Below, one piece after another: positions 7,265-43,683 of a DNA stretch of 64,000 bases. Source of the stretch: Kaistia adipata DSM 17808 (GTDB lineage Bacteria; Pseudomonadota; Alphaproteobacteria; Rhizobiales; Kaistiaceae); the NCBI RefSeq assembly GCF_000423225.1, contig NZ_AUHO01000006.1:124001-188000 (forward strand), read 5' to 3'. Below the pieces are notes generated by a model that did not search any database, was not told the DNA's origin, and worked only from the letters and a program-made list of their open reading frames with translations. How positions within the stretch are numbered: the stretch's first letter is position 1; the number at the start of each line of letters is the position of its first letter. The translations under genes and the position numbers were made by a program.

Positions 7265-8296
7265 ATGACGGTTCAGCAAAGCAGTTCGGCCCACGGGGCG
7301 TCGCGGTCCGGCAACTTCCTGCGCAACCAGATGCGCAACATCGCGCCTTTCGCGACCCTGATCCTGCTGATGATCTTCTTCAGCATCGCCAGCCCGTCCT
7401 TCGCGACGATCGACAATGCGTCCAACATCCTGACGCAGATCTCGGTGACCGGCATCATGGCCGTTGGCCTGACCTTCGTCATCCTCTGCGGCGAGATCGA
7501 TCTCTCCGTCGCCTCGATCGCCAATGCCACCGGCATCGTCGTCGCGTTCTTCACCCTGCAGGAAGCCTATGTGAACATCGCCAACGTGCCGCTGCCCGGC
7601 TGGCTGGCGATCGTCTTCGCGCTCGCAGCCTGCGTCGCGCTCGGCCTGGTCAACGCCGTCGGTACGACCGTCATCGGCATTCCGTCCTTCATCATGACGC
7701 TCGCCATGATGCAGATCGGCGCCGGCATCTGCGCGCTGCTGGTGCGCGGCCAGATCGCTTACAATGTGCCGGACCTCGTGATGACGCTCGGCTCCGGCCG
7801 GGTCTTCGGCTTCCCCGCCATCGCGCTGGTGCTGATCGCCTTCCTGATCGTCGGCCACCTGACGCTGAGCTACACGCGCTTCGGCCGCTACATCTACATG
7901 GTCGGCGGCAATCGCGAGGCGGCCGAATATTCCGGCGTCAACGTCAAGCTGGTGCTCGGCGCCGCGCTCGTCATCTGCGCGGTCTGCTCCGGCATCGCCG
8001 GCATGCTCGGCGTCGCCCATTTCGGCAGCGCCCAGCAGAACGAGTTCGATGGCTACCTGCTCGACGCGATCGCGGCGGTCGTCGTCGGCGGCACCAGCCT
8101 GTTCGGCGGCCGCGGCGGCATCGGCAACACCATCGTCGGCCTCTGCGTGCTGGGCGTGCTCAATAACGGCCTCGATCACATCCAGATCGACAGTTTCCTG
8201 AAGATCCTGATCCGTGGCCTGATCCTGCTCGCCGCCCTGATCGTCAACGTCTACGTGCAGAACATCCGCACGGTCGAGCGGGCGGAGGGTGCATGA
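7265..8296 (+). CDS. Sugar ABC transporter permease (CUT2 type)
   Basis: A 343-residue inner-membrane permease of the RbsC family with about eight to ten hydrophobic segments. Family motifs include the block around GLTFVILCGEIDLSVASIA and GTSLFGGRGGIGNT near the C terminus. A GAAGGA ribosome site precedes ATG 7265, 12 bp after the ATPase stop. Only one permease gene is present, so the pore is probably a homodimer. Confidence 0.9.
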   Translation: MTVQQSSSAHGASRSGNFLRNQMRNIAPFATLILLMIFFSIASPSFATIDNASNILTQISVTGIMAVGLTFVILCGEIDLSVASIANATGIVVAFFTLQEAYVNIANVPLPGWLAIVFALAACVALGLVNAVGTTVIGIPSFIMTLAMMQIGAGICALLVRGQIAYNVPDLVMTLGSGRVFGFPAIALVLIAFLIVGHLTLSYTRFGRYIYMVGGNREAAEYSGVNVKLVLGAALVICAVCSGIAGMLGVAHFGSAQQNEFDGYLLDAIAAVVVGGTSLFGGRGGIGNTIVGLCVLGVLNNGLDHIQIDSFLKILIRGLILLAALIVNVYVQNIRTVERAEGA

Positions 8297-8345
8297 TCCG
8301 ACAGGCATCGGCACCCAACACGGACCTCATGAAAAGGCTGCAAGC

Positions 8346-9134
8346 GTGACGACGGAAGCAACCCATCAGCCGCGCCACGGCGCCCTCTATCCGAGCCTTG
8401 CCGGCAGCACGGTGCTGGTCACCGGCGGCGGCAGCGGGATCGGCGAGGAAATCGTCCGCCAGTTCGCGCGCCAGGGCTCGAAGGTCGGCTTCATCGACAT
8501 CATCGAGGAGCCCTCCAAGGCGCTGGTCGCAGAACTCGAGGCCGAGGGGCGCGTGGTCCGTTTCGAGCGGGCGGACCTGACCGACATCGACGCGACGCGC
8601 GCCGCGATCGAGCGGATCCGGGAGGCGCTCGGCCCGGTCGAGATGCTGATCAACAACGCCGCGCATGACCAGCGCGCGACGATCGACGAGATCACCCCGG
8701 AATTCTGGGACTCGCGCCAGGCCGTGAACCTGAAGCACCAGTTCTTCTGCGCCCAGGCCGTCTACAAGGACATGGTGGCCAAGGGCGGCGGCTCGATCGT
8801 CAATGTCGGTTCCTTCGCCTATGTCGCCGGCGTGGAGGGGCTGACGCCCTATCTCGCCGCGAAATCCGGCGTCATCGGCCTGACGCGCGGCCTGGCGCGC
8901 GAACTCGGCGTGCACGGCATCCGGGTCAATTGCGTGATGCCGGGCTGGATCATGACGCAGCGCCAGCTCGATCTCTGGGTGACGCCCGAGGTGGAACAGG
9001 CGATCTATGCGCGGCAATGCCTGAAGCGGAAGATCTATCCGGCCGACATCGCGCGGGTGATCCTGTTCTTCGCTTCCGATGAATCCGGCGCCTGCACCAA
9101 TCAGAGCTATGTCGCCGATGGCGGCTGGACCTGA
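8346..9134 (+). CDS. SDR-family oxidoreductase, probable sugar or sugar-acid dehydrogenase
   Basis: A 262-residue classical short-chain dehydrogenase: cofactor motif TGGGSGIGEE, structural NNAA, catalytic Ser in NVGSFAYV, and YLAAK (Tyr-x-x-x-Lys). An Asp at the end of the second strand (GFIDI) suggests NAD(H). The start is GTG 8346 with AAAAGG 8 bp upstream; an upstream GTG at 8289 would overlap the permease. It is last in the importer operon before the LacI gene, so it probably oxidises the imported substrate or feeds the otn pathway. Confidence 0.82.
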   Translation: MTTEATHQPRHGALYPSLAGSTVLVTGGGSGIGEEIVRQFARQGSKVGFIDIIEEPSKALVAELEAEGRVVRFERADLTDIDATRAAIERIREALGPVEMLINNAAHDQRATIDEITPEFWDSRQAVNLKHQFFCAQAVYKDMVAKGGGSIVNVGSFAYVAGVEGLTPYLAAKSGVIGLTRGLARELGVHGIRVNCVMPGWIMTQRQLDLWVTPEVEQAIYARQCLKRKIYPADIARVILFFASDESGACTNQSYVADGGWT

Positions 9135-12212: not shown

Positions 12213-12596
12213 ATGATCAACCTCGTCATCCTCGTTTTCGTCGGCGGCGCGATTGGCGCCATGGCCCGCGAATTCCTCATGCTCAGCGTTCCGAATCTCG
12301 CGGACGGGTTTCCGATGCCGATCCTGGTCGCGAACGTCGTGGCGTCGTTCCTGCTGGGACTGGTCACGGGGCTACACAATCGCCGGGCCGTCAGCGACGA
12401 CGTCAACACGATGGTCGGAACCGGCATCATGGGCGGCCTCTCGACTTTCTCGAGCTTCGCCTATGGCGCCTGGGTGCTGATGAACGGAGCGCCGGCCGGC
12501 GCGGCCGTCGCCATCCTCTATGTGCTGATCAGCCTGGTTTTGGGCTACTGCGCCGTCTTCGCCGGCCTGAAGCTGGGCGCGCGCGGCACCGCCTGA
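12213..12596 (+). CDS. crcB: Fluoride channel CrcB, second of a pair
   Basis: 127 residues, four membrane segments. It has GGAIGAMAREFLM, the pore Asn in LVANVVASFLLG, and GGLSTFSSFAYG. It diverges clearly from the first copy, as in genomes where two oppositely oriented subunits form one channel. The ribosome site is AAGAGGA. A strong terminator follows 28 bp later. Confidence 0.92.
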   Translation: MINLVILVFVGGAIGAMAREFLMLSVPNLADGFPMPILVANVVASFLLGLVTGLHNRRAVSDDVNTMVGTGIMGGLSTFSSFAYGAWVLMNGAPAGAAVAILYVLISLVLGYCAVFAGLKLGARGTA

Positions 12597-12624
12597 GATC
12601 CATCGACCGGCGTCCAGACATGCA

Positions 12625-12656
12625 AAAGGCGGCGGCGCTTTCGCGCCGCCGCCTTT
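12625..12656. terminator. Bidirectional terminator between crcB and the dehydrogenase gene
   Basis: A perfect 14-bp stem (AAAGGCGGCGGCGC, 12625-12638, with 12643-12656) and a four-base loop, flanked by T runs on both strands. It lies between convergent genes. Confidence 0.9.
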
Positions 12657-12693
12657 CTTGTCTCGGATCGATAGGCGGTTGGCCGCCTGTGCG

Positions 12694-13956
12694 TCAGTTC
12701 GCGAAATACTTCTGCGTGCCGTGTGCCTCGATCGCGCCGGCGAGACGCGACAGGGCGTGCACATAGGCGGCGCTGCGGACCGTGATGCCACGCTCCTTGG
12801 CGATCGACCAGATCGCGCGGCCTTCGCGGTCCATCGTGTCCTGCAGGCGCGAGCGCACCTCCTCGGCCGACCAGTAGTAGCCCTGGCGGTTCTGCACCCA
12901 CTCGAAGTAGGAGACCGTGACGCCGCCGGCATTGGCCAGGATGTCCGGAAGGACGGTGACGCCCTTCTTCTCGAGGATGGCGTCGGCCTCGGGGGTGATC
13001 GGGCCGTTGGCGAGCTCAAGCACGACGCGCGCCTTGATGTCGGCGGCGTTGTTCTTGTGGATCAGGTCCTCGAGGGCGGCCGGAACCAGGATCTCGCAAT
13101 CGACCGCGGTGATCGCGCTGGCGTCGATCGCCTTGATGCCGTCGCTGCCGGCGAGGCCGACGACCGAGCCGATCTTCTTCGAGGCGAGCAGTTTGGCGAC
13201 GTCGAGGCCGGCGTCGCAGTGGATCGCGCCCTTCGAGTCGGAGACGGCGACGATCTTGTAGCCGTCGGCGCCGAGCAGGCTGGCGATGTGCTGGCCGGCA
13301 TTGCCGAAGCCCTGGATCGCGACGCGCGCGCCCGGCGTCAGGCCGAGCTCGGCGGCGAGGTTCTTGACCAGGTAGTAGCCGCCGCGCGCCGTGGCGTCGT
13401 CGCGGCCGAGCGAGCCGCCGAGCGCGATCGGCTTGCCGGTGATCACGGCCGGGGTCGATTCACCGACGATCGACGAGTACTCGTCGGCCATCCAGCCCAT
13501 GATCATCGAATTGGTGTAGACGTCAGGCGCCGGGATGTCGCGATCCGGGCCGACGATCTTCGAGAAGGCCTGCATGTAGGCGCGCGACAGGCGCTCCAGC
13601 TCTGCCTTCGACAGCGCATGCGGGTCGACGCGGACCGCGCCCTTGCCGCCGCCATAGGGCAGGTTCATCACGGCGCACTTCATCGTCATCCAGAAGGCGA
13701 GGGTCTCGACTTCCTCGATGGTCGAATCCGGATGGAAACGGATACCGCCCTTGGTCGGGCCGCGCGTGTCGTCGTAGCGGCAGCGCCAGGCCATGAAGGA
13801 CTTCCGCGAGCCGTCGTCCATGCGGATCATCAGCCGCACCTTGGTGGTCTCTCGGGGGTATTTGAGTTTCTCGAGGACGTCGCCATCCATGTGCAGATGC
13901 GCTGCAGCCTCGTCGAGGCGCGTCAGGGCCTGGTCGAGCATGGTGACGTCGGACAT
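12694..13956 (-). CDS. Glu/Leu/Phe/Val-type amino acid dehydrogenase (probable glutamate dehydrogenase)
   Basis: About 420 residues, the usual length for NAD-type hexameric glutamate dehydrogenases. The glycine-rich substrate motif LPYGGGKGAVRVDP carries the catalytic lysine, DDTRGPTKGGIRFHP precedes it, DIPAPDVYTN follows, and the Rossmann motif is IQGFGNAGQHIAS. It interconverts glutamate and 2-oxoglutarate plus ammonium. Start MSDVTMLDQ at 13956 is chosen; an in-frame ATG ten codons upstream (13986) is also possible. A 6-4-6 palindrome lies about 110 bp upstream. Confidence 0.88.
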   Translation of the reverse strand: MSDVTMLDQALTRLDEAAAHLHMDGDVLEKLKYPRETTKVRLMIRMDDGSRKSFMAWRCRYDDTRGPTKGGIRFHPDSTIEEVETLAFWMTMKCAVMNLPYGGGKGAVRVDPHALSKAELERLSRAYMQAFSKIVGPDRDIPAPDVYTNSMIMGWMADEYSSIVGESTPAVITGKPIALGGSLGRDDATARGGYYLVKNLAAELGLTPGARVAIQGFGNAGQHIASLLGADGYKIVAVSDSKGAIHCDAGLDVAKLLASKKIGSVVGLAGSDGIKAIDASAITAVDCEILVPAALEDLIHKNNAADIKARVVLELANGPITPEADAILEKKGVTVLPDILANAGGVTVSYFEWVQNRQGYYWSAEEVRSRLQDTMDREGRAIWSIAKERGITVRSAAYVHALSRLAGAIEAHGTQKYFAN

Positions 13957-28545: not shown

Positions 28546-28622
28546 GGCCCCGTAGCTCAGCTGGATAGAGCAGCCGCCTTCTAAGCGGCAGGTCGCAGGT
28601 TCGAGCCCTGCCGGGGTCGCCA
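28546..28622 (+). tRNA. tRNA-Arg (TCT), prophage integration site
   Basis: 77 nt. Acceptor GGCCCCG/CGGGGTC (one G-T pair), anticodon arm GCCGC-CTTCTAA-GCGGC with anticodon TCT, CCA encoded. The gene is intact; phage sequence begins directly after it, so the phage attachment core probably restores its 3' end. Confidence 0.96.
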
Positions 28623-28669
28623 ATCATCAATCTAAGATATTGAAATCATTGGTCTAAAATTCCCAAACT
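28588..28669. other. Probable attL: tRNA 3' end joined to prophage DNA
   Basis: The integrase gene ends 48 bp from the tRNA 3' end and the base composition turns AT-rich from 28623. Tyrosine integrases of this kind recombine in the anticodon or T-arm/3' end of tRNA genes. The exact core cannot be set without attR, which lies beyond the window. Confidence 0.65.
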
Positions 28670-28685
28670 TTATTGGGGTTGGGAA
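28655..28685 (-). terminator. Terminator at the end of the leftward prophage operon
   Basis: TTCCCAA/TTGGGAA arms (28660-28666 and 28679-28685) overlap the integrase stop and are followed on the minus strand by TTTT, fitting rho-independent termination before the tRNA. Confidence 0.6.
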
Positions 28686-29734
28686 TCTTTGGCCCCGAAA
28701 TGTTCTTCGACGAGCGTCACGGCGGCGCTCGAAAGCCGCTTTTGCGCGGCCATTCGGGTGTAGCGCTCAACCTCATCCATAGACGAGTGGCCGGTTATCG
28801 ACATGATCTGATTCGCCGAGCAGCCAGCCTCGGCCATCCGGCGCGCCGCTGCTTTCCTGAGACCATGAAGCACGCACCGATCCGGCAGCCCTGCGCCTTC
28901 GATGGAATCGGCCATATAGTTGCCATAGCCGGCCACCGCGAAGGGCTTCCCGAACGAGGTGGTCAGGATCATTACGTGAGTTCTGGGCCATGCATCCAAC
29001 GCGGCTCGCAGCGAACGATGCACTGGGATGGAGAGCTTGGCCCCGGTCTTCTCCTGGATGACGTCGATTCGGCCTGTCGCCGGCTCATAGTCCCTCCACG
29101 TCATAGAGCAGACATCGTGGCGCCTCTGGCCAGTGAAGAGGTGCAGCGCGAAGGCGGTCCGCTCGCGAGACCCTAGCGGCCATCGCGTCTCGAACTGCGC
29201 AATCTCTTCCTCTGTCCAGGTGTGATAGGTGCCCTCGGCGAACTTCTTGATGCCGCTTGTGGGGTCGTCTGGCCGCCAACCGTTCGCAATCGAGAAGCGG
29301 ATCAGCATCCGGACTATCTTGAGCAGGTTGTTCGCGCCCGCCGGGGTGGCCGCTTTCCTGCCCACGATCATCGTGACATGTTGGCGGGTCATCTGCTTGA
29401 CGAGGCGGTGGCCGTGTTCCTCGCAGAACCGGTCGATCAGTCCTCGGTTCTTGGCGCGCGTTGACGGCTTCAATGCGAGGAAGTCGGTCGAGACGTAATA
29501 GTCATGCGCCAGCCGGGCAAAGGTGCCTTCCTCTCCGCGATTCTTTGCGGGCTTCGCCTTCGGGGCTGCCGCTGCTGCGGCCTTGGCGTAGGCGTCCAGA
29601 AAATCCGGCGCCCCGATGTCGGGCAGCGGGATGCGCTGGCATCCTGGCGCACGGTAGTAGTAGCGCATCCGGCCGTGCCGATCCTTGAAGCGGTCGATGT
29701 GCTTCAAGTCCATGGTCACTGGATGTCGGCCCAT
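28670..29734 (-). CDS. int: Phage tyrosine integrase
   Basis: A 354-residue tyrosine recombinase that integrates and excises the prophage. An SAM-like core-binding domain lies around residues 70-165. The catalytic domain has Arg in LFTGQRRHDVCSM, the His-x-x-Arg box HGLRKAAARRMAE, His in ITGHSSMDEVERYTRMA and the nucleophilic Tyr in the same segment. GAGG stands 7 bp before ATG 29734. It overlaps the preceding helix-turn-helix gene by 19 bp; a second ATG at 29713 would avoid the overlap. Confidence 0.93.
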   Translation of the reverse strand: MGRHPVTMDLKHIDRFKDRHGRMRYYYRAPGCQRIPLPDIGAPDFLDAYAKAAAAAAPKAKPAKNRGEEGTFARLAHDYYVSTDFLALKPSTRAKNRGLIDRFCEEHGHRLVKQMTRQHVTMIVGRKAATPAGANNLLKIVRMLIRFSIANGWRPDDPTSGIKKFAEGTYHTWTEEEIAQFETRWPLGSRERTAFALHLFTGQRRHDVCSMTWRDYEPATGRIDVIQEKTGAKLSIPVHRSLRAALDAWPRTHVMILTTSFGKPFAVAGYGNYMADSIEGAGLPDRCVLHGLRKAAARRMAEAGCSANQIMSITGHSSMDEVERYTRMAAQKRLSSAAVTLVEEHFGAKDSQPQ

Positions 29735-38901: not shown

Positions 38902-39437
38902 ATTTAGATTTGCGCGAGACATAGCCCATCCGCCGCCCTGGCCGTGTCGAGGAATCGACGAGGCTCACTCAGCGAGGGCGGATCGCGCGGGGGTCGAAAG
39001 TCCTACGGTGCGGCTGAGGAAACTGAGGACGGGCAGGCCGAGAGGCTGTCCTGCCGTATGCGACCGACCGACGTGACGGTTCTTGTCGCCGGCATCGATT
39101 CCCTCCCGCGTGGCTTCGGTCACGGGGGTAGGGGGTCTTTGCCTGCTCCCTCCCTTAGATCGGGTTCTTGAAATTCAATCCAACACTTAGATCTGGCTCT
39201 GTCTCAGCAGGATATGCACCGCGAGCGCGAGCCGTGTTTTGTCGGCGCGGGGCTTCTGTCCACGTCGGCTGTATCTAGCTGGAACTGGCTGAAGATAGCT
39301 GGAATTGGTTGAAAATCGCTGTGTTTCGATTATGTTTACTTCGAGCAGGCAGGCGCCGGAACCACTCCGAGTTGCCCTACGGGGCGGCAGCACCCTTTGC
39401 GGTGTGAATCAGGAGCCGGGGGCCTGCCCATTCGTTT
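38902..39437. other. Non-coding stretch with a 20-bp tandem repeat
   Basis: No gene I can support; a frame at 38944-39171 has the Gly/Ser/Arg composition of a spurious ORF. At 39276-39315 two 20-bp units in tandem (beginning TAGCTGGAACTGG and TAGCTGGAATTGG, 3 mismatches) are followed by a fragment of a third. Confidence 0.5.
39276..39315. repeat. Two-copy 20-bp tandem repeat
   Basis: Units 39276-39295 and 39296-39315 match at 17 of 20 positions, with a partial third copy (TCGCTG) next. Possible protein-binding iterons or slipped-strand duplication. Confidence 0.6.
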
Positions 39438-40235
39438 TCAGCGATGCTCATCGAAAAATGCGTACTGTCTGTCGTCAGCAGCGCATTTCTGCATACTAGG
39501 GACCGGCGTTACGCCGCAGTCTAGTATGATGCCATTTCGCTTCAGCAGCTTCTCACGAAGAAGCCTCCCGTAGGCCGGCTCGTAGTTGCCGTAGAGATTT
39601 GGCTCGACTGCAGAAAAGAAGGCGCTGGTGACGCAATCGGCAATTTGCAGACCTGCCCACTTGCTGTGATTCTCGACTGCAATGTTGTCGATATCAAGCA
39701 CATTCCAGACGATGGATCTGACGGGCCGCATTACCTCGCGACCGTCCCTCATCAATTGCAGATAGTCGATCATGCTTTGGTAATTTGTTCCGCCGCGCCG
39801 GGAGAAAATAACGCGAAGCGAGCATCCGTCTGGGGATGCTTTGTGACAGGCTTGAGTGACTCTCTCAAGAAGCCACCTAATCAGATAGTTGTATAAATAT
39901 CCCTTCTTTTTGAACGTATCCTCATACTTGGTGCCCGCAATTGTAACCTTGTGCGATAGCGTGACGCATACTCCTACAAGGAGTTTCGCGATTTCTTGGC
40001 ATACAACGACCTTTTGGTCGTGCTTGAGTTCACGGAAATGCAGGTCTCTGGACTTCTTGGCGGGAAAGCGCCCGACAATTGCGTCTTTCCAGCCCGCCAT
40101 GAGGACGTCGTTCTCTGCCGAGACGATGCAGGCGCCGAGTACCAGCCAGCGAGATTGTCCTCCCACTGCTCCGGAAGCGAGTTTGCCGAAACCTTCGTCT
40201 CCTGCCTCGTCAATGTACGCAATGTACCTGCTCAC
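39438..40235 (-). CDS. DUF3800 domain protein
   Basis: 265 residues. The N-terminal YIDEAGDEGFGKLASG is the DUF3800 signature, whose acidic residues suggest an RNase H-like nuclease fold. Later LHFRELKH, VRSIVWNVLDIDN and LQIADCVTSAFF (the D in ADC pattern) fit too. The gene is visibly AT-richer than its neighbours, pointing to recent acquisition. DUF3800 proteins turn up in mobile elements, sometimes near defence genes. Last of the minus-strand genes behind the repressor. Confidence 0.82.
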   Translation of the reverse strand: MSRYIAYIDEAGDEGFGKLASGAVGGQSRWLVLGACIVSAENDVLMAGWKDAIVGRFPAKKSRDLHFRELKHDQKVVVCQEIAKLLVGVCVTLSHKVTIAGTKYEDTFKKKGYLYNYLIRWLLERVTQACHKASPDGCSLRVIFSRRGGTNYQSMIDYLQLMRDGREVMRPVRSIVWNVLDIDNIAVENHSKWAGLQIADCVTSAFFSAVEPNLYGNYEPAYGRLLREKLLKRNGIILDCGVTPVPSMQKCAADDRQYAFFDEHR

Positions 40236-40286
40236 GCTCAGAGGCGCTCCTAGTGTTTATGAATGTGGCCCGCGGTAGATCTTGCT

Positions 40287-40946
40287 TCACCGTCCCCAGT
40301 ACGGCGCGCGCCAGCCAGCCTTGATCGCCTCGCCCTCGTCGCAGAACCACCGTTCGCCGTTTTCGACGCTGACCTTGGTCCGGCTGTACCAAGGCGACCA
40401 CGGCGCATGGTAGATCCGCTCGCCCTTGCGGTTGATGTTGCCCTTGATCGGGCAGCCTTCCGGGGCCTGCTGAGCAGCGACGTCCCAGCGGTTCTGACGG
40501 AACTCCCAGGGCGCCTCGGTCTCCTGCTCCCATACACCGACCGCCGCGGCGCGCGCCTCGTCCTCGGCGTCGACATAGTCCTCGGAATAGCGGCGGAAGG
40601 CCCAGGCCATTCCCTCCTTGACCATCAGGCGGCCGAGATCGAGGCCGGCGACTTTGCAGATCGCGAGAGTGCGGCCGTAGACGTCGAGCCCTCGATCGTC
40701 GCAGGTGACATCGCCCTCGGCGACGGCTTTCTCCATCTGGCGGATCGCCGCCTGGCCGCACTGCCAAGTTCCGCCGCCGGGCTTGCGGCAACTTTGGCCG
40801 GCCTCGGGCGCATCGATGCCGAATATGCGGATAGTCTTGCCGTCGACCTTCAGCGTGTCGCCGTCGATGACGTGCACTTCGGCCGCAAGGGCGGCGCCGG
40901 CGGTGATGACGCATGCGGCGAGCGCCGCGGCGATGGATCTGAGCAT
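40287..40946 (-). CDS. Exported thermonuclease (staphylococcal-nuclease family)
   Basis: 219 residues with a Sec signal (MLRSIAAALAACVITAGAALAA). SNase domain: VIDGDTLKVDGKTIRIFGID then APE gives the calcium-binding Asp residues, the catalytic Arg and Glu; DVYGRTLAIC holds the second catalytic Arg. A C-terminal extension of about 70 residues (from WEQETEAPWEFRQ) has two cysteines and an excalibur-like WFCDEGEA stretch. It would act in the periplasm or outside the cell. Confidence 0.88.
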   Translation of the reverse strand: MLRSIAAALAACVITAGAALAAEVHVIDGDTLKVDGKTIRIFGIDAPEAGQSCRKPGGGTWQCGQAAIRQMEKAVAEGDVTCDDRGLDVYGRTLAICKVAGLDLGRLMVKEGMAWAFRRYSEDYVDAEDEARAAAVGVWEQETEAPWEFRQNRWDVAAQQAPEGCPIKGNINRKGERIYHAPWSPWYSRTKVSVENGERWFCDEGEAIKAGWRAPYWGR

Positions 40947-40981
40947 TCCTGAGGTCCCCCCGACCCTTCGCCTGTGACGCG

Positions 40982-41251
40982 TCAGCCCCCGGCGTCGCCC
41001 GTCTCGTCGAACCAATCCGGGATCGTCCCCAGTCGCACCAGAATGACCGGCTCGCCATAGTCGCCGGTGTCCGGATCGAGCGTCCGCGACCAGGCAATTG
41101 CGCCGGCGTGGCTGGTGGCCAGCATCTTCGCACGCTGCGTCGCCTGCGCGGCCGTCGGCATCTGCTGCGGCGGCTCGGCGGCGATCGTGTCCTCGTCATC
41201 GTCGAGGCGCTTGAAGACGACGACGACGTGGATAGTGGCTGGTGGTGTCAT
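40982..41251 (-). CDS. Small hypothetical protein
   Basis: 89 residues, beginning MTPPATIHVVVVFKRLDDDE and ending with VILVRLGTIPDWFDETGDAG. The hydrophobic strand pattern suggests a small alpha/beta fold. It sits between the barrel-like gene (sharing one base) and the nuclease gene in the repressor operon. Function unknown. Confidence 0.6.
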   Translation of the reverse strand: MTPPATIHVVVVFKRLDDDEDTIAAEPPQQMPTAAQATQRAKMLATSHAGAIAWSRTLDPDTGDYGEPVILVRLGTIPDWFDETGDAGG

Positions 41252-42072
41252 CAGTTTAACCGAAAGCTCAGGCCCAGCATCAGCGAGCCTTGGGGTTGGA
41301 TCTCGGCGGAGACGGAATTCAGGAGAGTGGTCGCATCAGGCCGCGTCCCCGCGTATTGGAACTCGCCGCCCTTCTGGATGTAGTTGTCCGCCGACCATCT
41401 CGCGATCTCCGAGCCTGAGATGCTTCCGTTCTGCATCGCGATCTGGCCTCGAAGGGAGACCAGGAAACGTTCGCCGAACTTCCGTTCGATTGAGGTGAAA
41501 ATCAGCGGCGACACTCGGACCGAATCTATGCTCACCTCTGAGCGCGCATCGCTGCCGTAGGCTTCCATGCCGCGTACATTCGATTGGTAGATATGAAAAA
41601 TGCTGCCTCGGCTGTCTATGACGGAGGAAAGCTCGTACCGATCAACTGAAACGCCGCCGCCCAAGACAACGTTATAGTCCCCGGCCTTGACGCCATAGTG
41701 GACATCGAACTGGCCGAGGGGCTGATGCGAGAAACTCTGTGATCGGAAGTTGTCCAAGCCAACGCCGTCTGGAAGCGGCTCTCTGACCGTCAGGCTCGGC
41801 CAAGAGAACGATTGGTCTGAAGATTGTTCGCCGAATCTGGCGGCGATACTGGCCCCGATAAAGTGTGAGCCGAAATCGTTTCGGATTGTCGCTCCTACGC
41901 TTCCTGTCGCTATGGTGCCCAAGCGCTCCCATTCTTCGAAGTAGTGATGTTGCGCTTCTGGCGATGTCGCCACTCCGACGGCCCCGTCCAAATAGAGCTT
42001 GATCTCGCCGCTATGGCTCGCCAGTGGCTGCACCGCGAGCCCCACGGCGAGGGCTATTGCCCATCTGCGCAT
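41251..42072 (-). CDS. Exported, outer-membrane-barrel-like protein
   Basis: 273 residues with a signal peptide (MRRWAIALAVGLAVQPLASH). The mature chain alternates polar and apolar residues in strand-like stretches (GAVGVATSPEAQHHYF, VHYGVKAGDYNVVLGGGVSV, LVSLRGQIAMQNG) and ends LMLGLSFRLN, close to the aromatic-ended last strand of outer-membrane barrels. Family unknown. Located between an apparent lipoprotein and the exported nuclease in the operon behind the repressor. Confidence 0.65.
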   Translation of the reverse strand: MRRWAIALAVGLAVQPLASHSGEIKLYLDGAVGVATSPEAQHHYFEEWERLGTIATGSVGATIRNDFGSHFIGASIAARFGEQSSDQSFSWPSLTVREPLPDGVGLDNFRSQSFSHQPLGQFDVHYGVKAGDYNVVLGGGVSVDRYELSSVIDSRGSIFHIYQSNVRGMEAYGSDARSEVSIDSVRVSPLIFTSIERKFGERFLVSLRGQIAMQNGSISGSEIARWSADNYIQKGGEFQYAGTRPDATTLLNSVSAEIQPQGSLMLGLSFRLN

Positions 42073-42105
42073 CATTCCATCCCCCCGGATGTGACCTTGT
42101 TGCGG

Positions 42106-42480
42106 TCAGATTGTGATGCCTTTGTTCCAGCACGACTGCTGAACGAGGAACGTTGCGGACTCTTGCCCGCCGACGCCGCCGAAGGTGAACGCTCCTGGCG
42201 CGCCTGACACGAGGTATGGTTGGTCGCCGATATAGGCCCCGAAGCTGTTCTTCCCATTCACGTAGCCGCAGACGTGCATCACGCCGCTACTGTCACGGAC
42301 CGCGAACATGTTGCCGAAAACGGCCGAATACGGGTCTTTCATATGCAGGCGCACGCTGGCCTCGACAGCGGCCTTGTCCGCATCGGATAGCGTGATCGGC
42401 GTGCCGGCGTTTTGGTTGCTGGCGGACTGGCACCCTACCAAGAGAGCCGCGGCGACTGCCGCGGGCACGATACGAAGCAT
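42106..42480 (-). CDS. Small lipoprotein
   Basis: 124 residues with a lipoprotein signal, VAAALLVGCQSASN (lipobox LVGC). The mature part has HMKDPYSAVFGNMFAVRD and VHVCGYVNGKNSFGAYIG, a pattern known from small proteobacterial lipoproteins of unknown function. It starts 39 bp after the repressor stop, so it probably shares its transcript and is made in the lysogen. Confidence 0.75.
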   Translation of the reverse strand: MLRIVPAAVAAALLVGCQSASNQNAGTPITLSDADKAAVEASVRLHMKDPYSAVFGNMFAVRDSSGVMHVCGYVNGKNSFGAYIGDQPYLVSGAPGAFTFGGVGGQESATFLVQQSCWNKGITI

Positions 42481-42519: not shown

Positions 42520-43305
42520 CTAGTCGACGGTGAATCTAGCGACATAGGCGCCGATGATGAAAACGTCGTCGGCCAGCACTTCGTAGGTGGTGTAATCCTT
42601 GTTGGCCGGGATCAGGCGGAGCTTCGGCGGCACCGAGCCTTGGACGTACTCGACCTGCTTGATCGTCTGGCCGTCCCCCTCCCAGAGGGCGAAGACGCCC
42701 GGCATTCTCGGGTTGCGCTTGGAGCGGTCGACGAGCACCACGTCGCCGTTGTTGATCAGCGGGTACATCGAGTTGCCCTCGCACTCGACGAAGTGCAACT
42801 GCTCGATCGGCGTGCTGACGCGCCGGCGAAGGACGGTCGTCGGGACTCGCCAGGTGTCGCTTACTGGAACGCCGATGACGCTGCTGCCGCCACCGATATC
42901 GATTTGGATCTGCTCGCCAGCGTCTCGAAGCCCCAGTCCAAGTGTCTCCGCCTGCGGAATCTCGTCAGGCGCGATGCCGACACGGCGGCCGTCCGATACT
43001 GCCCGCTGAACCGGCTCGAACTCTGGGTCTGGATCAAACTCGTGTCCGAGGGGCACGCGCTTCAGTTCGCCGGCGTGCTCATCAGGCGGCGACAGTAGCG
43101 GCGGGAACTCTCCGAAGAACTCCGCCATCTTAAGCAACTCGGCGGCCGTGATCTCCCGAGACTCCTTGCCGGGATCCGTGCTGGTCATCCGCGTAATGGC
43201 GGACGAGCCGACGCCTAGGCATTCGGCGAGCTTCTTCCGGGCGCCGTGCCCCTTCTTTTCGATCTGGCCTTCGAGCCAAGTTCTGAGGATTTCGCGAGAG
43301 TCCAT
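42520..43305 (-). CDS. Phage repressor (HTH plus S24 peptidase-like domain)
   Basis: 261 residues, a CI-type repressor. The N-terminal helix-turn-helix includes ARKKLAECLGVGSSAITRM (about residues 28-46). The C-terminal LexA/CI-like domain keeps Ser in VECEGNSMYPLINNGD and Lys in TIKQVEYVQ. I see no Ala-Gly dipeptide in the 30-40 residues before the Ser, where the self-cleavage site normally is, so RecA-driven autolysis is doubtful. The start is ATG 43305, beside operator 43316-43330. Confidence 0.88.
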   Translation of the reverse strand: MDSREILRTWLEGQIEKKGHGARKKLAECLGVGSSAITRMTSTDPGKESREITAAELLKMAEFFGEFPPLLSPPDEHAGELKRVPLGHEFDPDPEFEPVQRAVSDGRRVGIAPDEIPQAETLGLGLRDAGEQIQIDIGGGSSVIGVPVSDTWRVPTTVLRRRVSTPIEQLHFVECEGNSMYPLINNGDVVLVDRSKRNPRMPGVFALWEGDGQTIKQVEYVQGSVPPKLRLIPANKDYTTYEVLADDVFIIGAYVARFTVD

Positions 43306-43315
43306 ATCGGCATTG

Positions 43316-43394
43316 TTGCGATGGCCGCAAAAACCGCTATCGCGAAGATCGCAAATTTCTCTTGACGGTAAATTGCGATTGTCGCAAATATAGT
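43316..43394. promoter_or_regulatory. Immunity-region operators and divergent promoters (OR-like)
   Basis: Three 15-bp operators: TTGCGATGGCCGCAA (43316-43330), TCGCGAAGATCGCAA (43340-43354) and the perfect TTGCGATTGTCGCAA (43373-43387). The rightward promoter is probably TTGACG (43362-43367) with a -10 near CAAATA or TATAGT (43385-43394), so the third operator covers it. Transcription would begin almost at ATG 43399, giving a leaderless or nearly leaderless Cro-like mRNA. Confidence 0.85.
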
Positions 43395-43398
43395 CGTC

Positions 43399-43683
43399 AT
43401 GGAAAAGCATCTCGACCCAGCCCGTTCCGTCATCGCCAAGCTCGGCGGCCCTGAGGTCGTCCGAGGGATCACCGGCAAGAGCCTTACCCGCATCTATCGC
43501 TGGATGTACCCGGCGAGCAGGGGGGGCACCGAGGGTGTCATTCCGCATCTCGACGCTCGGAAGCTGCTGCAGTTCGCCCAGGCAAATGGCATCGAACTTG
43601 AGCCGCGCGACTTCTTCCCGGTTCTGACGGCAAAACGGTTTGACGAGGTGTGGGGCGAAGGCGGCCGGAGGCGAGACTCATGA
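43399..43683 (+). CDS. Cro-like small regulator
   Basis: 94 residues. SVIAKLGGPEVVRGITGKSLTRIYRWMYP is arranged like a helix-turn-helix (recognition helix about SLTRIYRWMYP). It is the first gene rightward from the operator region and faces the repressor, the cro position. The leader is only a few bases long. Expected to shut off the repressor promoter during lytic growth. Confidence 0.78.
   Translation: MEKHLDPARSVIAKLGGPEVVRGITGKSLTRIYRWMYPASRGGTEGVIPHLDARKLLQFAQANGIELEPRDFFPVLTAKRFDEVWGEGGRRRDS

What the first reader, a model, noticed from the sequence alone, without database searches (positions are those of the whole stretch)
39438..42480. Candidate superinfection-exclusion module behind the repressor: lipoprotein, barrel-like protein, exported nuclease, DUF3800
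Five genes follow the repressor on its strand with short gaps, the place of lambda rexAB, and three carry export signals. A lysogen would make a lipoprotein, an outer-membrane-like protein and a periplasmic thermonuclease with intact catalytic residues. Together they could block or degrade incoming phage DNA, with DUF3800 as a second barrier. I know of no described system of this composition.
Basis: partly seen in the sequence, partly recalled or inferred. Interest (0 to 1): 0.72.

Follow-up and report, generated by a model that had tools for sequence, protein, structure and literature searches.

The report
Mixed prophage cargo with RNA-paired nuclease
The genes behind this prophage's repressor look like a patchwork of separately acquired cargo rather than one defence machine, and one of them, taken for a lone gene, is really half of a pair: a predicted nuclease facing a small structured RNA on the opposite strand, whose job is still unknown.

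Summary
The 'barrel' is unsupported. The set is not a conserved module: the nearest sister phage keeps only the 89-aa gene and the nuclease, a Kaistia soli prophage has the 89-aa gene plus an acyltransferase, a Mesorhizobium relative none of the five; the barrel-like protein was found only here (1 of 397 order genomes). The convergent pair recurs in phages (RNA in 21 of 41 DUF3800 contigs, at the stop codon in 20), with a repressor upstream in 11 of 42. The RNA fold covaries; the protein model is RNase HII-like (Z 11.7). Best reading: lysogen cargo of independent units, DUF3800 plus RNA being an RNA-controlled nuclease pair that probably protects the lysogen. The pairing is a known association of unknown function; this is a new member. 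Anti-phage action is untested.

The parts
43387..43415 (-). sigma-70-like promoter site in front of the repressor
   Evidence: 9 of 12 matches; consensus match only
42520..43305 (-). CI-like repressor with S24 peptidase domain (start codon chosen by eye)
   Evidence: PF00717 E 1.9e-11; phrog_4 E 5.7e-20
42106..42480 (-). 124-aa lipoprotein of a phage moron family (phrog_2320)
   Evidence: (E 3.3e-20); lipobox by eye
41251..42075 (-). 274-aa orphan protein with an export signal by eye; barrel fold not shown
40982..41251 (-). 89-aa protein, the one cargo gene found in both the sister phage L006 and the Kaistia soli prophage
   Evidence: 90% over 84 residues in L006, 73% over 81 in L080
40287..40946 (-). 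SNase (thermonuclease) with export signal by eye, C-terminal sunset domain, catalytic positions intact
   Evidence: (NF051437, 45.5 bits, cut-off 27)
39438..40235 (-). DUF3800 protein, RNase HII-like predicted fold
   Evidence: (PF12686, 37.8 bits, cut-off 21)
39344..39433 (+). DUF3800-VII RNA (RF02967), convergent with the DUF3800 gene, 4 nt past its stop codon
39309..39336 (+). promoter-like site of the RNA: TTGAAA, 16 nt, TATGTT, 7 nt before the RNA 5' end

Best explanation
The stretch is the lysogeny cargo zone of a temperate phage of the genus Kaistia, probably read from the repressor promoter. It holds separately acquired units: a moron-family lipoprotein, an orphan exported protein, a resident pair (89-aa gene plus exported SNase), and a two-part unit made of the DUF3800 gene and a convergent small RNA with its own promoter-like site. 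Shown by sequence: the parts, their order, the swapping of parts between sister phages, the recurrence of the DUF3800-RNA pair in other phages, and the covarying RNA fold. Predicted: the protein has an RNase HII-like fold with a conserved DEAG motif and D200. Inferred mechanism: the RNA is made constitutively and binds the DUF3800 protein, holding or licensing its nuclease activity, in the manner of an RNA antitoxin. The protein is made with the repressor, so the pair is active in the lysogen. Infection or host take-over upsets the balance, the freed nuclease cuts nucleic acid, and the invading phage fails. The exported nuclease and lipoprotein may act separately at the envelope.
For: Mosaic: in the fetched 18.6 kb of sister phage L006 the backbone (dnaB 94%, g44024 99%), the 89-aa gene and the nuclease (97%) are kept, but lipoprotein, barrel-like gene and DUF3800 are not found (tblastn E<=1e-4), nor the RNA. 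The Kaistia soli prophage has the 89-aa gene plus Acyl_transf_3, and the Mesorhizobium relative L104 none of the five. Pair: RF02967 at 58.9 bits. Rhizobium phage RHph_TM3_3_3 has repressor, 11 nt, DUF3800, then convergent RNA at 50.1 bits. 21 of 41 DUF3800 phage contigs (own copy included) match RF02967, 19 over the cut-off; 20 of the 21 RNAs are convergent and within -42 to +9 nt of the stop codon. 7 of 297 genomes of the order have the RNA: the window and five others with DUF3800 running into it, and one with a 28-aa remnant. Promoter-like sites stand before 18 of 22 RNAs. 13 of 20 base pairs show changes on both sides, against 5.7 in shuffles, 0 of 500 reaching it. Fold: pLDDT 93.4; best matches RNase HII, H2 and HIII, Z up to 11.7. 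No run of more than 6 columns with entropy over 1 bit in 15 RNAs, so a programmable guide is unlikely in this subset. A repressor is the gene found upstream of DUF3800 on its strand, within 360 nt, in 11 of 42 phage records.
Against: No expression, binding, toxicity or protection data exist. In 31 of 42 phage records no repressor was found directly upstream of DUF3800 (the window itself among them, with four genes between; two have an integrase there; not every upstream gene was classified). 20 of 41 DUF3800 contigs gave no RF02967 match; four of these (L143, L149, L150, L163) also lack the stem pattern, and in L139 the contig ends at the gene. 4 of 22 RNAs lack a promoter-like site (L128, L129, L130, L155). 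One RNA (L161) lies 1804 nt past a 160-aa DUF3800 reading frame, on the same strand; the gene there seems split over two frames. The RNA could be an antisense regulator or a transcript end rather than a protein partner. A defence role for DUF3800 rests on two papers' remarks about CRISPR-linked members, not on tests of the phage pair.
Confidence: 0.45

Rival explanations
1. One five-gene superinfection-exclusion module: lipoprotein, barrel and periplasmic nuclease block or cut incoming DNA, with DUF3800 as a second barrier.
For: Operon-like spacing behind the repressor; export signals by eye; intact SNase positions. A nuclease cutting phage DNA during injection is known: SNIPE (PMC13190303, abstract and passages seen), though that one is membrane-bound with a cytoplasmic GIY-YIG domain.
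Against: No other record found with the set; parts are swapped between sister phages; the barrel-like gene is an orphan; in the fetched stretches (at most 20.9 kb each) of the other 40 DUF3800 viral contigs and L106, no relative of the lipoprotein, barrel-like or 89-aa gene was found at E<=1e-4 and an SNase in only one, L155; codon composition differs.
Confidence: 0.06
2. Plain lysogenic-conversion genes with no anti-phage role: exported nuclease for DNA scavenging or matrix turnover, lipoprotein for surface fitness, DUF3800-RNA as a selfish addiction pair.
For: Nuclease relatives are common in the order (46 of 199 genomes at E<=1e-25, own included); the lipoprotein family sits as lone morons beside tape-measure genes.
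Against: The place behind repressors and the acyltransferase in the K. soli relative fit surface change and immunity as well; nothing here separates the two.
Confidence: 0.27
3. The RNA is a cis regulator: a convergent antisense RNA or transcript end that tunes DUF3800 mRNA, not a protein partner.
For: It is convergent at the 3' end in 20 of 21 records, like some type I antitoxin RNAs (recalled).
Against: A four-helix fold with double compensatory changes and invariant unpaired columns is more than antisense pairing needs; RNA and protein distances correlate (Mantel r 0.79, 14 pairs), though linkage alone could give that.
Confidence: 0.2
4. An RNA-programmed effector: the RNA guides the RNase H-like protein to targets.
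For: The fold also resembles Argonautes more weakly (Z about 7, a level at which chance resemblance is common); DUF3800 proteins accompany some class 2 CRISPR loci (PMC10910872, PMC12669027; passages seen).
Against: No guide-like variable stretch in 15 aligned RNAs (longest run of columns over 1 bit is 6); longer RNA types were not analysed this way.
Confidence: 0.08

Closest known systems
DUF3800-VII RNA with DUF3800 gene (Rfam RF02967; attributed from recall to Weinberg et al. 2017, which is not held; cited as ref. 59 of PMC10910872)
   Same: RNA over the gathering score, DUF3800 gene beside it
   Different: Here the pair lies in a prophage repressor operon; I describe the convergent 3' placement, the promoter-like sites and the RNase HII-like model, and could not check whether the original paper already says so
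Rhizobium phage RHph_TM3_3_3, EVB37_069 and EVB37_068 plus RNA
   Same: S24 repressor, DUF3800 (54% identity, 99% coverage), convergent DUF3800-VII RNA
   Different: DUF3800 follows the repressor directly, with no lipoprotein, barrel-like gene or nuclease between
Type III toxin-antitoxin systems (ToxIN and kin; recalled)
   Same: would work alike: structured RNA restraining a nuclease
   Different: RNA is convergent and downstream, single not repeated; protein model is RNase H-like
RNase HII / RNase H2
   Same: best fold match, Z 11.7, rmsd 4.1, 175 residues to 1eke_A
   Different: no sequence-level family match (one search lists only DUF3800 and DUF7677 at E<=1)
SNIPE (PMC13190303, abstract and passages seen)
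   Same: nuclease at the envelope that cuts phage DNA during entry
   Different: inner-membrane protein with DUF4041 and GIY-YIG facing the cytoplasm; the window's enzyme is an SNase with an export signal and a sunset domain
lambda rexAB (recalled)
   Same: position behind the repressor on its strand
   Different: no Rex family among the Pfam matches at E<=1

Membership tests
DUF3800 (PF12686) | score over Pfam gathering cut-off | tested here: met
   37.8 bits, cut-off 21
DUF3800-VII RNA (RF02967) | score over Rfam gathering cut-off, full length | tested here: met
   58.9 bits, cut-off 36.2, model positions 1-90 of 90
DUF3800-VII RNA (RF02967) | conserved base-paired fold | tested here: met
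   95.0% of cells paired; 13 of 20 pairs with double changes against 5.7 shuffled, 15 RNAs
DUF3800-VII RNA (RF02967) | made as a separate RNA | not testable with these tools
   promoter-like site only; no RNA-seq
RNase HII | fold | tested here: met
   AF2 model pLDDT 93.4; Foldseek 1eke_A E 5e-5, Z 11.7
RNase HII | sequence-level family match | tested here: not met
   Pfam scan at E<=1 lists DUF3800 and DUF7677 only
Type III toxin-antitoxin | repeated RNA upstream of the toxin on its strand (definition recalled) | tested here: not met
   one RNA match in the stretch, opposite strand, downstream of the gene
Type III toxin-antitoxin | toxicity relieved by the RNA | not testable with these tools
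   needs bench work
SNase (PF00565) | domain score and catalytic positions | tested here: met
   51.6 bits, cut-off 21; alignment to 1snd
sunset domain (NF051437) | score over NCBIfam cut-off | tested here: met
   45.5 bits, cut-off 27, residues 167-215
Outer-membrane beta-barrel | barrel fold or family match | tested here: inconclusive
   no family; model failed, pLDDT 28.5; alternation z 2.1
Superinfection-exclusion module of five genes | set conserved in other phages | tested here: not met
   no other record found with the set
Superinfection-exclusion module of five genes | protects lysogen from phage | not testable with these tools
   needs plaque assays
SNIPE | DUF4041 and GIY-YIG domains | tested here: not met
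   Pfam scan of the six proteins at E<=1 lists neither

The most novel reading that the evidence does not exclude
Prophages use a widespread class of RNA-controlled nuclease, an RNase HII-like DUF3800 protein restrained or licensed by a small RNA made from the opposite strand, as a lysogen-expressed immunity or addiction device. In effect it would be a new architectural class of RNA antitoxin or RNA-partnered anti-phage system, present in phages with quite different RNA subtypes.
Probability: 0.38. Interest if true: 0.82.

Novelty: new member of a known kind. Interest (0 to 1): 0.55.

Why it matters
DUF3800 RNAs are known candidate structured RNAs beside DUF3800 genes. My searches of the held library showed no function for the pair: DUF3800 with phage defense 0 papers, 'DUF3800 RNA' 0, DUF3800 11 papers, of which I saw passages of four. 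Showing that temperate phages carry the pair, often behind repressors, with the RNA facing the gene from its own promoter-like site and the protein modelled as RNase HII-like, gives a concrete place, time of expression and two-plasmid test. It also corrects the five-gene-module reading: each cargo unit should be tested alone.

Tried and rejected
Barrel-like protein: single-sequence structure prediction failed and no relative was found in 50,697 phage records at E<=0.1, 28 family genomes, 397 order genomes at E<=0.01 or viral contigs other than its own, so no alignment could be built. Its fold stays open.

Prophage ends: I looked for a repeat of the tRNA-Arg 3' end (integrase gene beside it) in window positions 64001-84000 and found no shared 15-mer; the attachment site is unresolved.

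Other Rfam families beside DUF3800 in contigs without RF02967: none but two tRNAs at the gathering score in 18 loci; L163 and L164 were not scanned against all of Rfam. A home-made model (R1) added L136, L144, L164 and L145 at E<=0.01. A two-stem descriptor at the 3' end was met on the antisense strand in 32 of 40 loci, against 7 of 40 on the sense strand and 113 of 475 random stretches. It was written after looking at these sequences, so it is only suggestive; among the 19 testable loci without an RF02967 match it is 15 of 19. L139 was dropped because its contig ends at the gene.

Sequence profile of DUF3800 against solved structures gave immunoglobulin-binding protein A and unrelated chains, which I take for a helix artefact and rejected.

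Rows left out: alignment A4 uses the window plus 37 of the other 40 viral DUF3800 proteins (L139 and L150 left out as copies of L138 and L149 by their printed starts and match scores, L161 truncated). Alignment A5 uses 15 of 22 RNAs (own copy L126, the longer L151-L153, L161, L162, L165 and L166 left out). Repressor calls: the S24 model was built partly from loci it then recovered (L106, L131, L140, L155). Upstream genes were checked with Pfam for only 10 loci, so HTH and Arc types were sought only among loci with the RNA. One search saw only the fetched stretches, not whole contigs.

The lipoprotein's fold, the 89-aa protein's function and the SNase-89-aa neighbourhood in other genomes were not pursued. 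Other paper searches: superinfection exclusion with nuclease, periplasm and prophage, 29 papers, 20 listed, one opened; sunset domain 1 irrelevant; prophage with thermonuclease and superinfection 1, listing only; candidate structured RNAs 16, listing only; RNase HII with noncoding RNA, toxin-antitoxin and prophage 1, listing only. Passages of PMC11701678 and PMC7657543 name DUF3800-I and -IX only for RNA structure. The other seven of the 11 DUF3800 papers were not opened.
Full report
What was given. I checked the genes, looked for relatives of each, and compared the site in related phages.

The genes. On the minus strand, in order: S24 repressor 42520-43305, 124-aa lipoprotein 42106-42480, 274-aa protein 41251-42075, 89-aa protein 40982-41251, SNase 40287-40946, DUF3800 39438-40235. 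Gaps are 51 nt or less, no minus-strand terminator-like site was found in the stretch, and a promoter-like site precedes the repressor. The surroundings are a temperate phage: integrase, RecT/Bet-like and exonuclease VIII genes on the left, and anti-repressor, DnaB-like helicase, terminase, portal, scaffold, head and tail genes on the right (20 proteins scanned). A viral contig of the same phage is held (IMGVR 2524614770_000002).

The set is not a module. In the closest phage found (L006, 18.6 kb fetched of a 48.6-kb metagenome contig) the backbone is nearly identical (dnaB 94%, g44024 99%) and the 89-aa gene (90%) and nuclease (97%) are there, but the repressor is different and the lipoprotein, 274-aa protein and DUF3800 are not found by tblastn at E<=1e-4. 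In their place are a 270-aa protein, another gene that looks like a lipoprotein by eye, and other small genes without Pfam families over cut-off. In the Kaistia soli prophage the repressor is followed by the 89-aa gene (73%) and an acyltransferase (PF01757, E 3.2e-24). In a Mesorhizobium relative none of the five is found. The 274-aa protein has no relative outside its own genome in 28 family genomes, 397 order genomes or the phage records. Codon composition also splits the set: GC3 is 0.84-0.85 for the 89-aa and nuclease genes, like seven phage core genes (0.76-0.88), but 0.78, 0.70 and 0.61 for lipoprotein, 274-aa protein and DUF3800.

The single units. The lipoprotein belongs to phrog_2320 (E 3.3e-20), with matches in 19 of 297 order genomes, own included, and 85 phage records at E<=0.01. 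In ES18 its relative gp20 is annotated 'possible moron' beside the tape-measure gene; in Paracoccus phage Pkon1 it is on the strand opposite the tape measure; in Klebsiella phage VIPKPNMC05 it lies just before the tape measure; in Thiobacimonas phage ThpS-P1 it follows the Cro/CI repressor directly. I looked at six of the 85 records' neighbourhoods. The nuclease is an SNase with intact catalytic positions and a C-terminal sunset domain; relatives at E<=1e-25 occur in 46 of 199 order genomes, own included. L007, a different prophage, carries it (81%) near what look by eye like a KilA-N gene and lysis genes. The 89-aa protein has relatives in 50 of 297 order genomes, own included, no match in phage records and no known domain.

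The missed RNA. Rfam's DUF3800-VII RNA lies at 39344-39433 on the plus strand, 58.9 bits against a cut-off of 36.2, its 3' end 4 nt from the DUF3800 stop codon. In Rhizobium phage RHph_TM3_3_3 the only phage-record relative of DUF3800 (1 of 50,697 records at E<=1e-3, 54% identity) sits 11 nt behind an S24 repressor and faces the same RNA (50.1 bits). A viral-contig scan gave 41 DUF3800 loci, one of them the window's own. RF02967 matches in 21 of 41 records, 19 over the cut-off; in the 14 control genomes 3 give weak matches, none over the cut-off. In 20 of these 21 the RNA is convergent and -42 to +9 nt from the stop codon; the exception is L161. Among 297 order genomes 7 have the RNA, six of them over the cut-off, and 0 of 14 controls. 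Five of the other six have a DUF3800 relative running into it, and the sixth shows only a 28-aa C-terminal remnant with weak scores.

Is the RNA real and separate? On 15 RNAs, 95.0% of cells pair and 13 of 20 pairs show changes on both sides, against 5.7 in shuffles (0 of 500), and sliding the partners lowers this to 1-5. The structure was derived from the same alignment, which favours it over slid versions. The best -35/-10 match placed 4-12 nt before the RNA start is as good in at most 5% of random positions for 18 of 22 RNAs; in the window it is TTGAAA-16-TATGTT, 0 of 400 random positions as good. An independent scan finds the same site, one of 3 in 4.6 kb where 1.0 is expected. The four failures are L128, L129, L130 and L155. 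RNA and protein distances correlate (Mantel r 0.79 over 14 pairs, p 0.0001; 0.52 in the 10 closest), as expected if the pair travels as a unit.

The protein. An AlphaFold2 model from the window plus 37 relatives has pLDDT 93.4 and pTM 0.92. The best solved matches are RNase HII, H2 and HIII (Foldseek E 5e-5; Z 11.7, rmsd 4.1, 175 residues to 1eke_A), above RNase HI and Argonaute at about Z 7. Invariant residues in the 38 proteins include Y7, D9, E10, A11, G12, D13, H66, K96, R125, D200. The DEAG string resembles the RNase HII active-site motif (recalled). Altae-Tran et al. 2023 (PMC10910872, passages) report an RNase H fold with a catalytic rearrangement for a CRISPR-linked DUF3800 and mention the ncRNA association; a 2025 CRISPR classification (PMC12669027, passage) lists DUF3800 as an RNase H fold nuclease encoded in some VI-F and V-A2 loci.

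Where the pair lives. In 11 of 42 phage records (41 contigs plus L106) a repressor is the gene found upstream of DUF3800 on its strand within 360 nt: S24 type in L106, L127 (partial), L131, L140, L143, L155, L159; HTH type in L162, L165, L166; Arc type in L152. Two more follow an integrase (L128, L129). In the window four genes lie between. Not every upstream gene was classified, so 11 is a lower bound for repressors of other kinds; L143 and L159 have no RF02967 match. In the fetched stretches of the other 40 contigs and L106 no relative of the lipoprotein, the 274-aa or the 89-aa gene was found; one (L155) has an SNase.

Mechanism, and how far it is shown. Shown: gene order, swapping of parts, recurrent pair, covarying RNA. 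Predicted: fold, promoter. Inferred: lysogen expression, RNA-protein binding, nuclease activity, protection. I prefer an RNA-restrained or RNA-licensed nuclease over a guide system because no RNA stretch varies freely over more than 6 columns, and over mere antisense control because the fold is kept by compensatory change. Neither is excluded. A periplasmic SNase could in principle act on entering DNA, as the membrane nuclease SNIPE does from the cytoplasmic side (PMC13190303, abstract and passages), but nothing here tests that.

Verdict. The DUF3800-RNA association is already catalogued; this is a new member in a telling place.

Noticed in passing
   Followed up: yes
window 40302-40448 (-), nuclease residues 167-215: C-terminal sunset domain on the exported SNase; G168 also has a separate match to this end of the protein, 75% (L097).
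   Followed up: no
L095:8772-9564 and L092:982-3053: SNase-like reading frames beside or near relatives of the 89-aa protein in two other genomes, hinting that the 89-aa protein and SNases keep company.
   Followed up: partly
L161, L162, L165, L166: DUF3800-VII-like RNAs in phages whose flanks look AT-richer, with near-consensus promoter sites directly before the RNA start.
   Followed up: partly
L151, L152, L153, L144, L145, L154, L164 at the DUF3800 3' end: Longer RNA candidates (115-137 nt) with similar closing stems but extra length inside, poorly covered by the Rfam model.
   Followed up: partly
L121:9907-10093: RNA over the cut-off beside a DUF3800 remnant of about 28 residues in a chromosome, suggesting decay of the protein first.
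   Followed up: partly
window 38944-39171: Stretch between DUF3800 and the early genes whose reading frames resemble L006 (about 12536-12784) and L080 (about 8232-8555) without a clear gene.
   Followed up: no
window 28546-29734: tRNA-Arg followed by an integrase gene; no matching attachment repeat found up to window position 84000.
   Followed up: partly
L109:3956-4561: Unannotated lipoprotein-family reading frame directly behind the Cro/CI repressor of Thiobacimonas phage ThpS-P1.
   Followed up: yes
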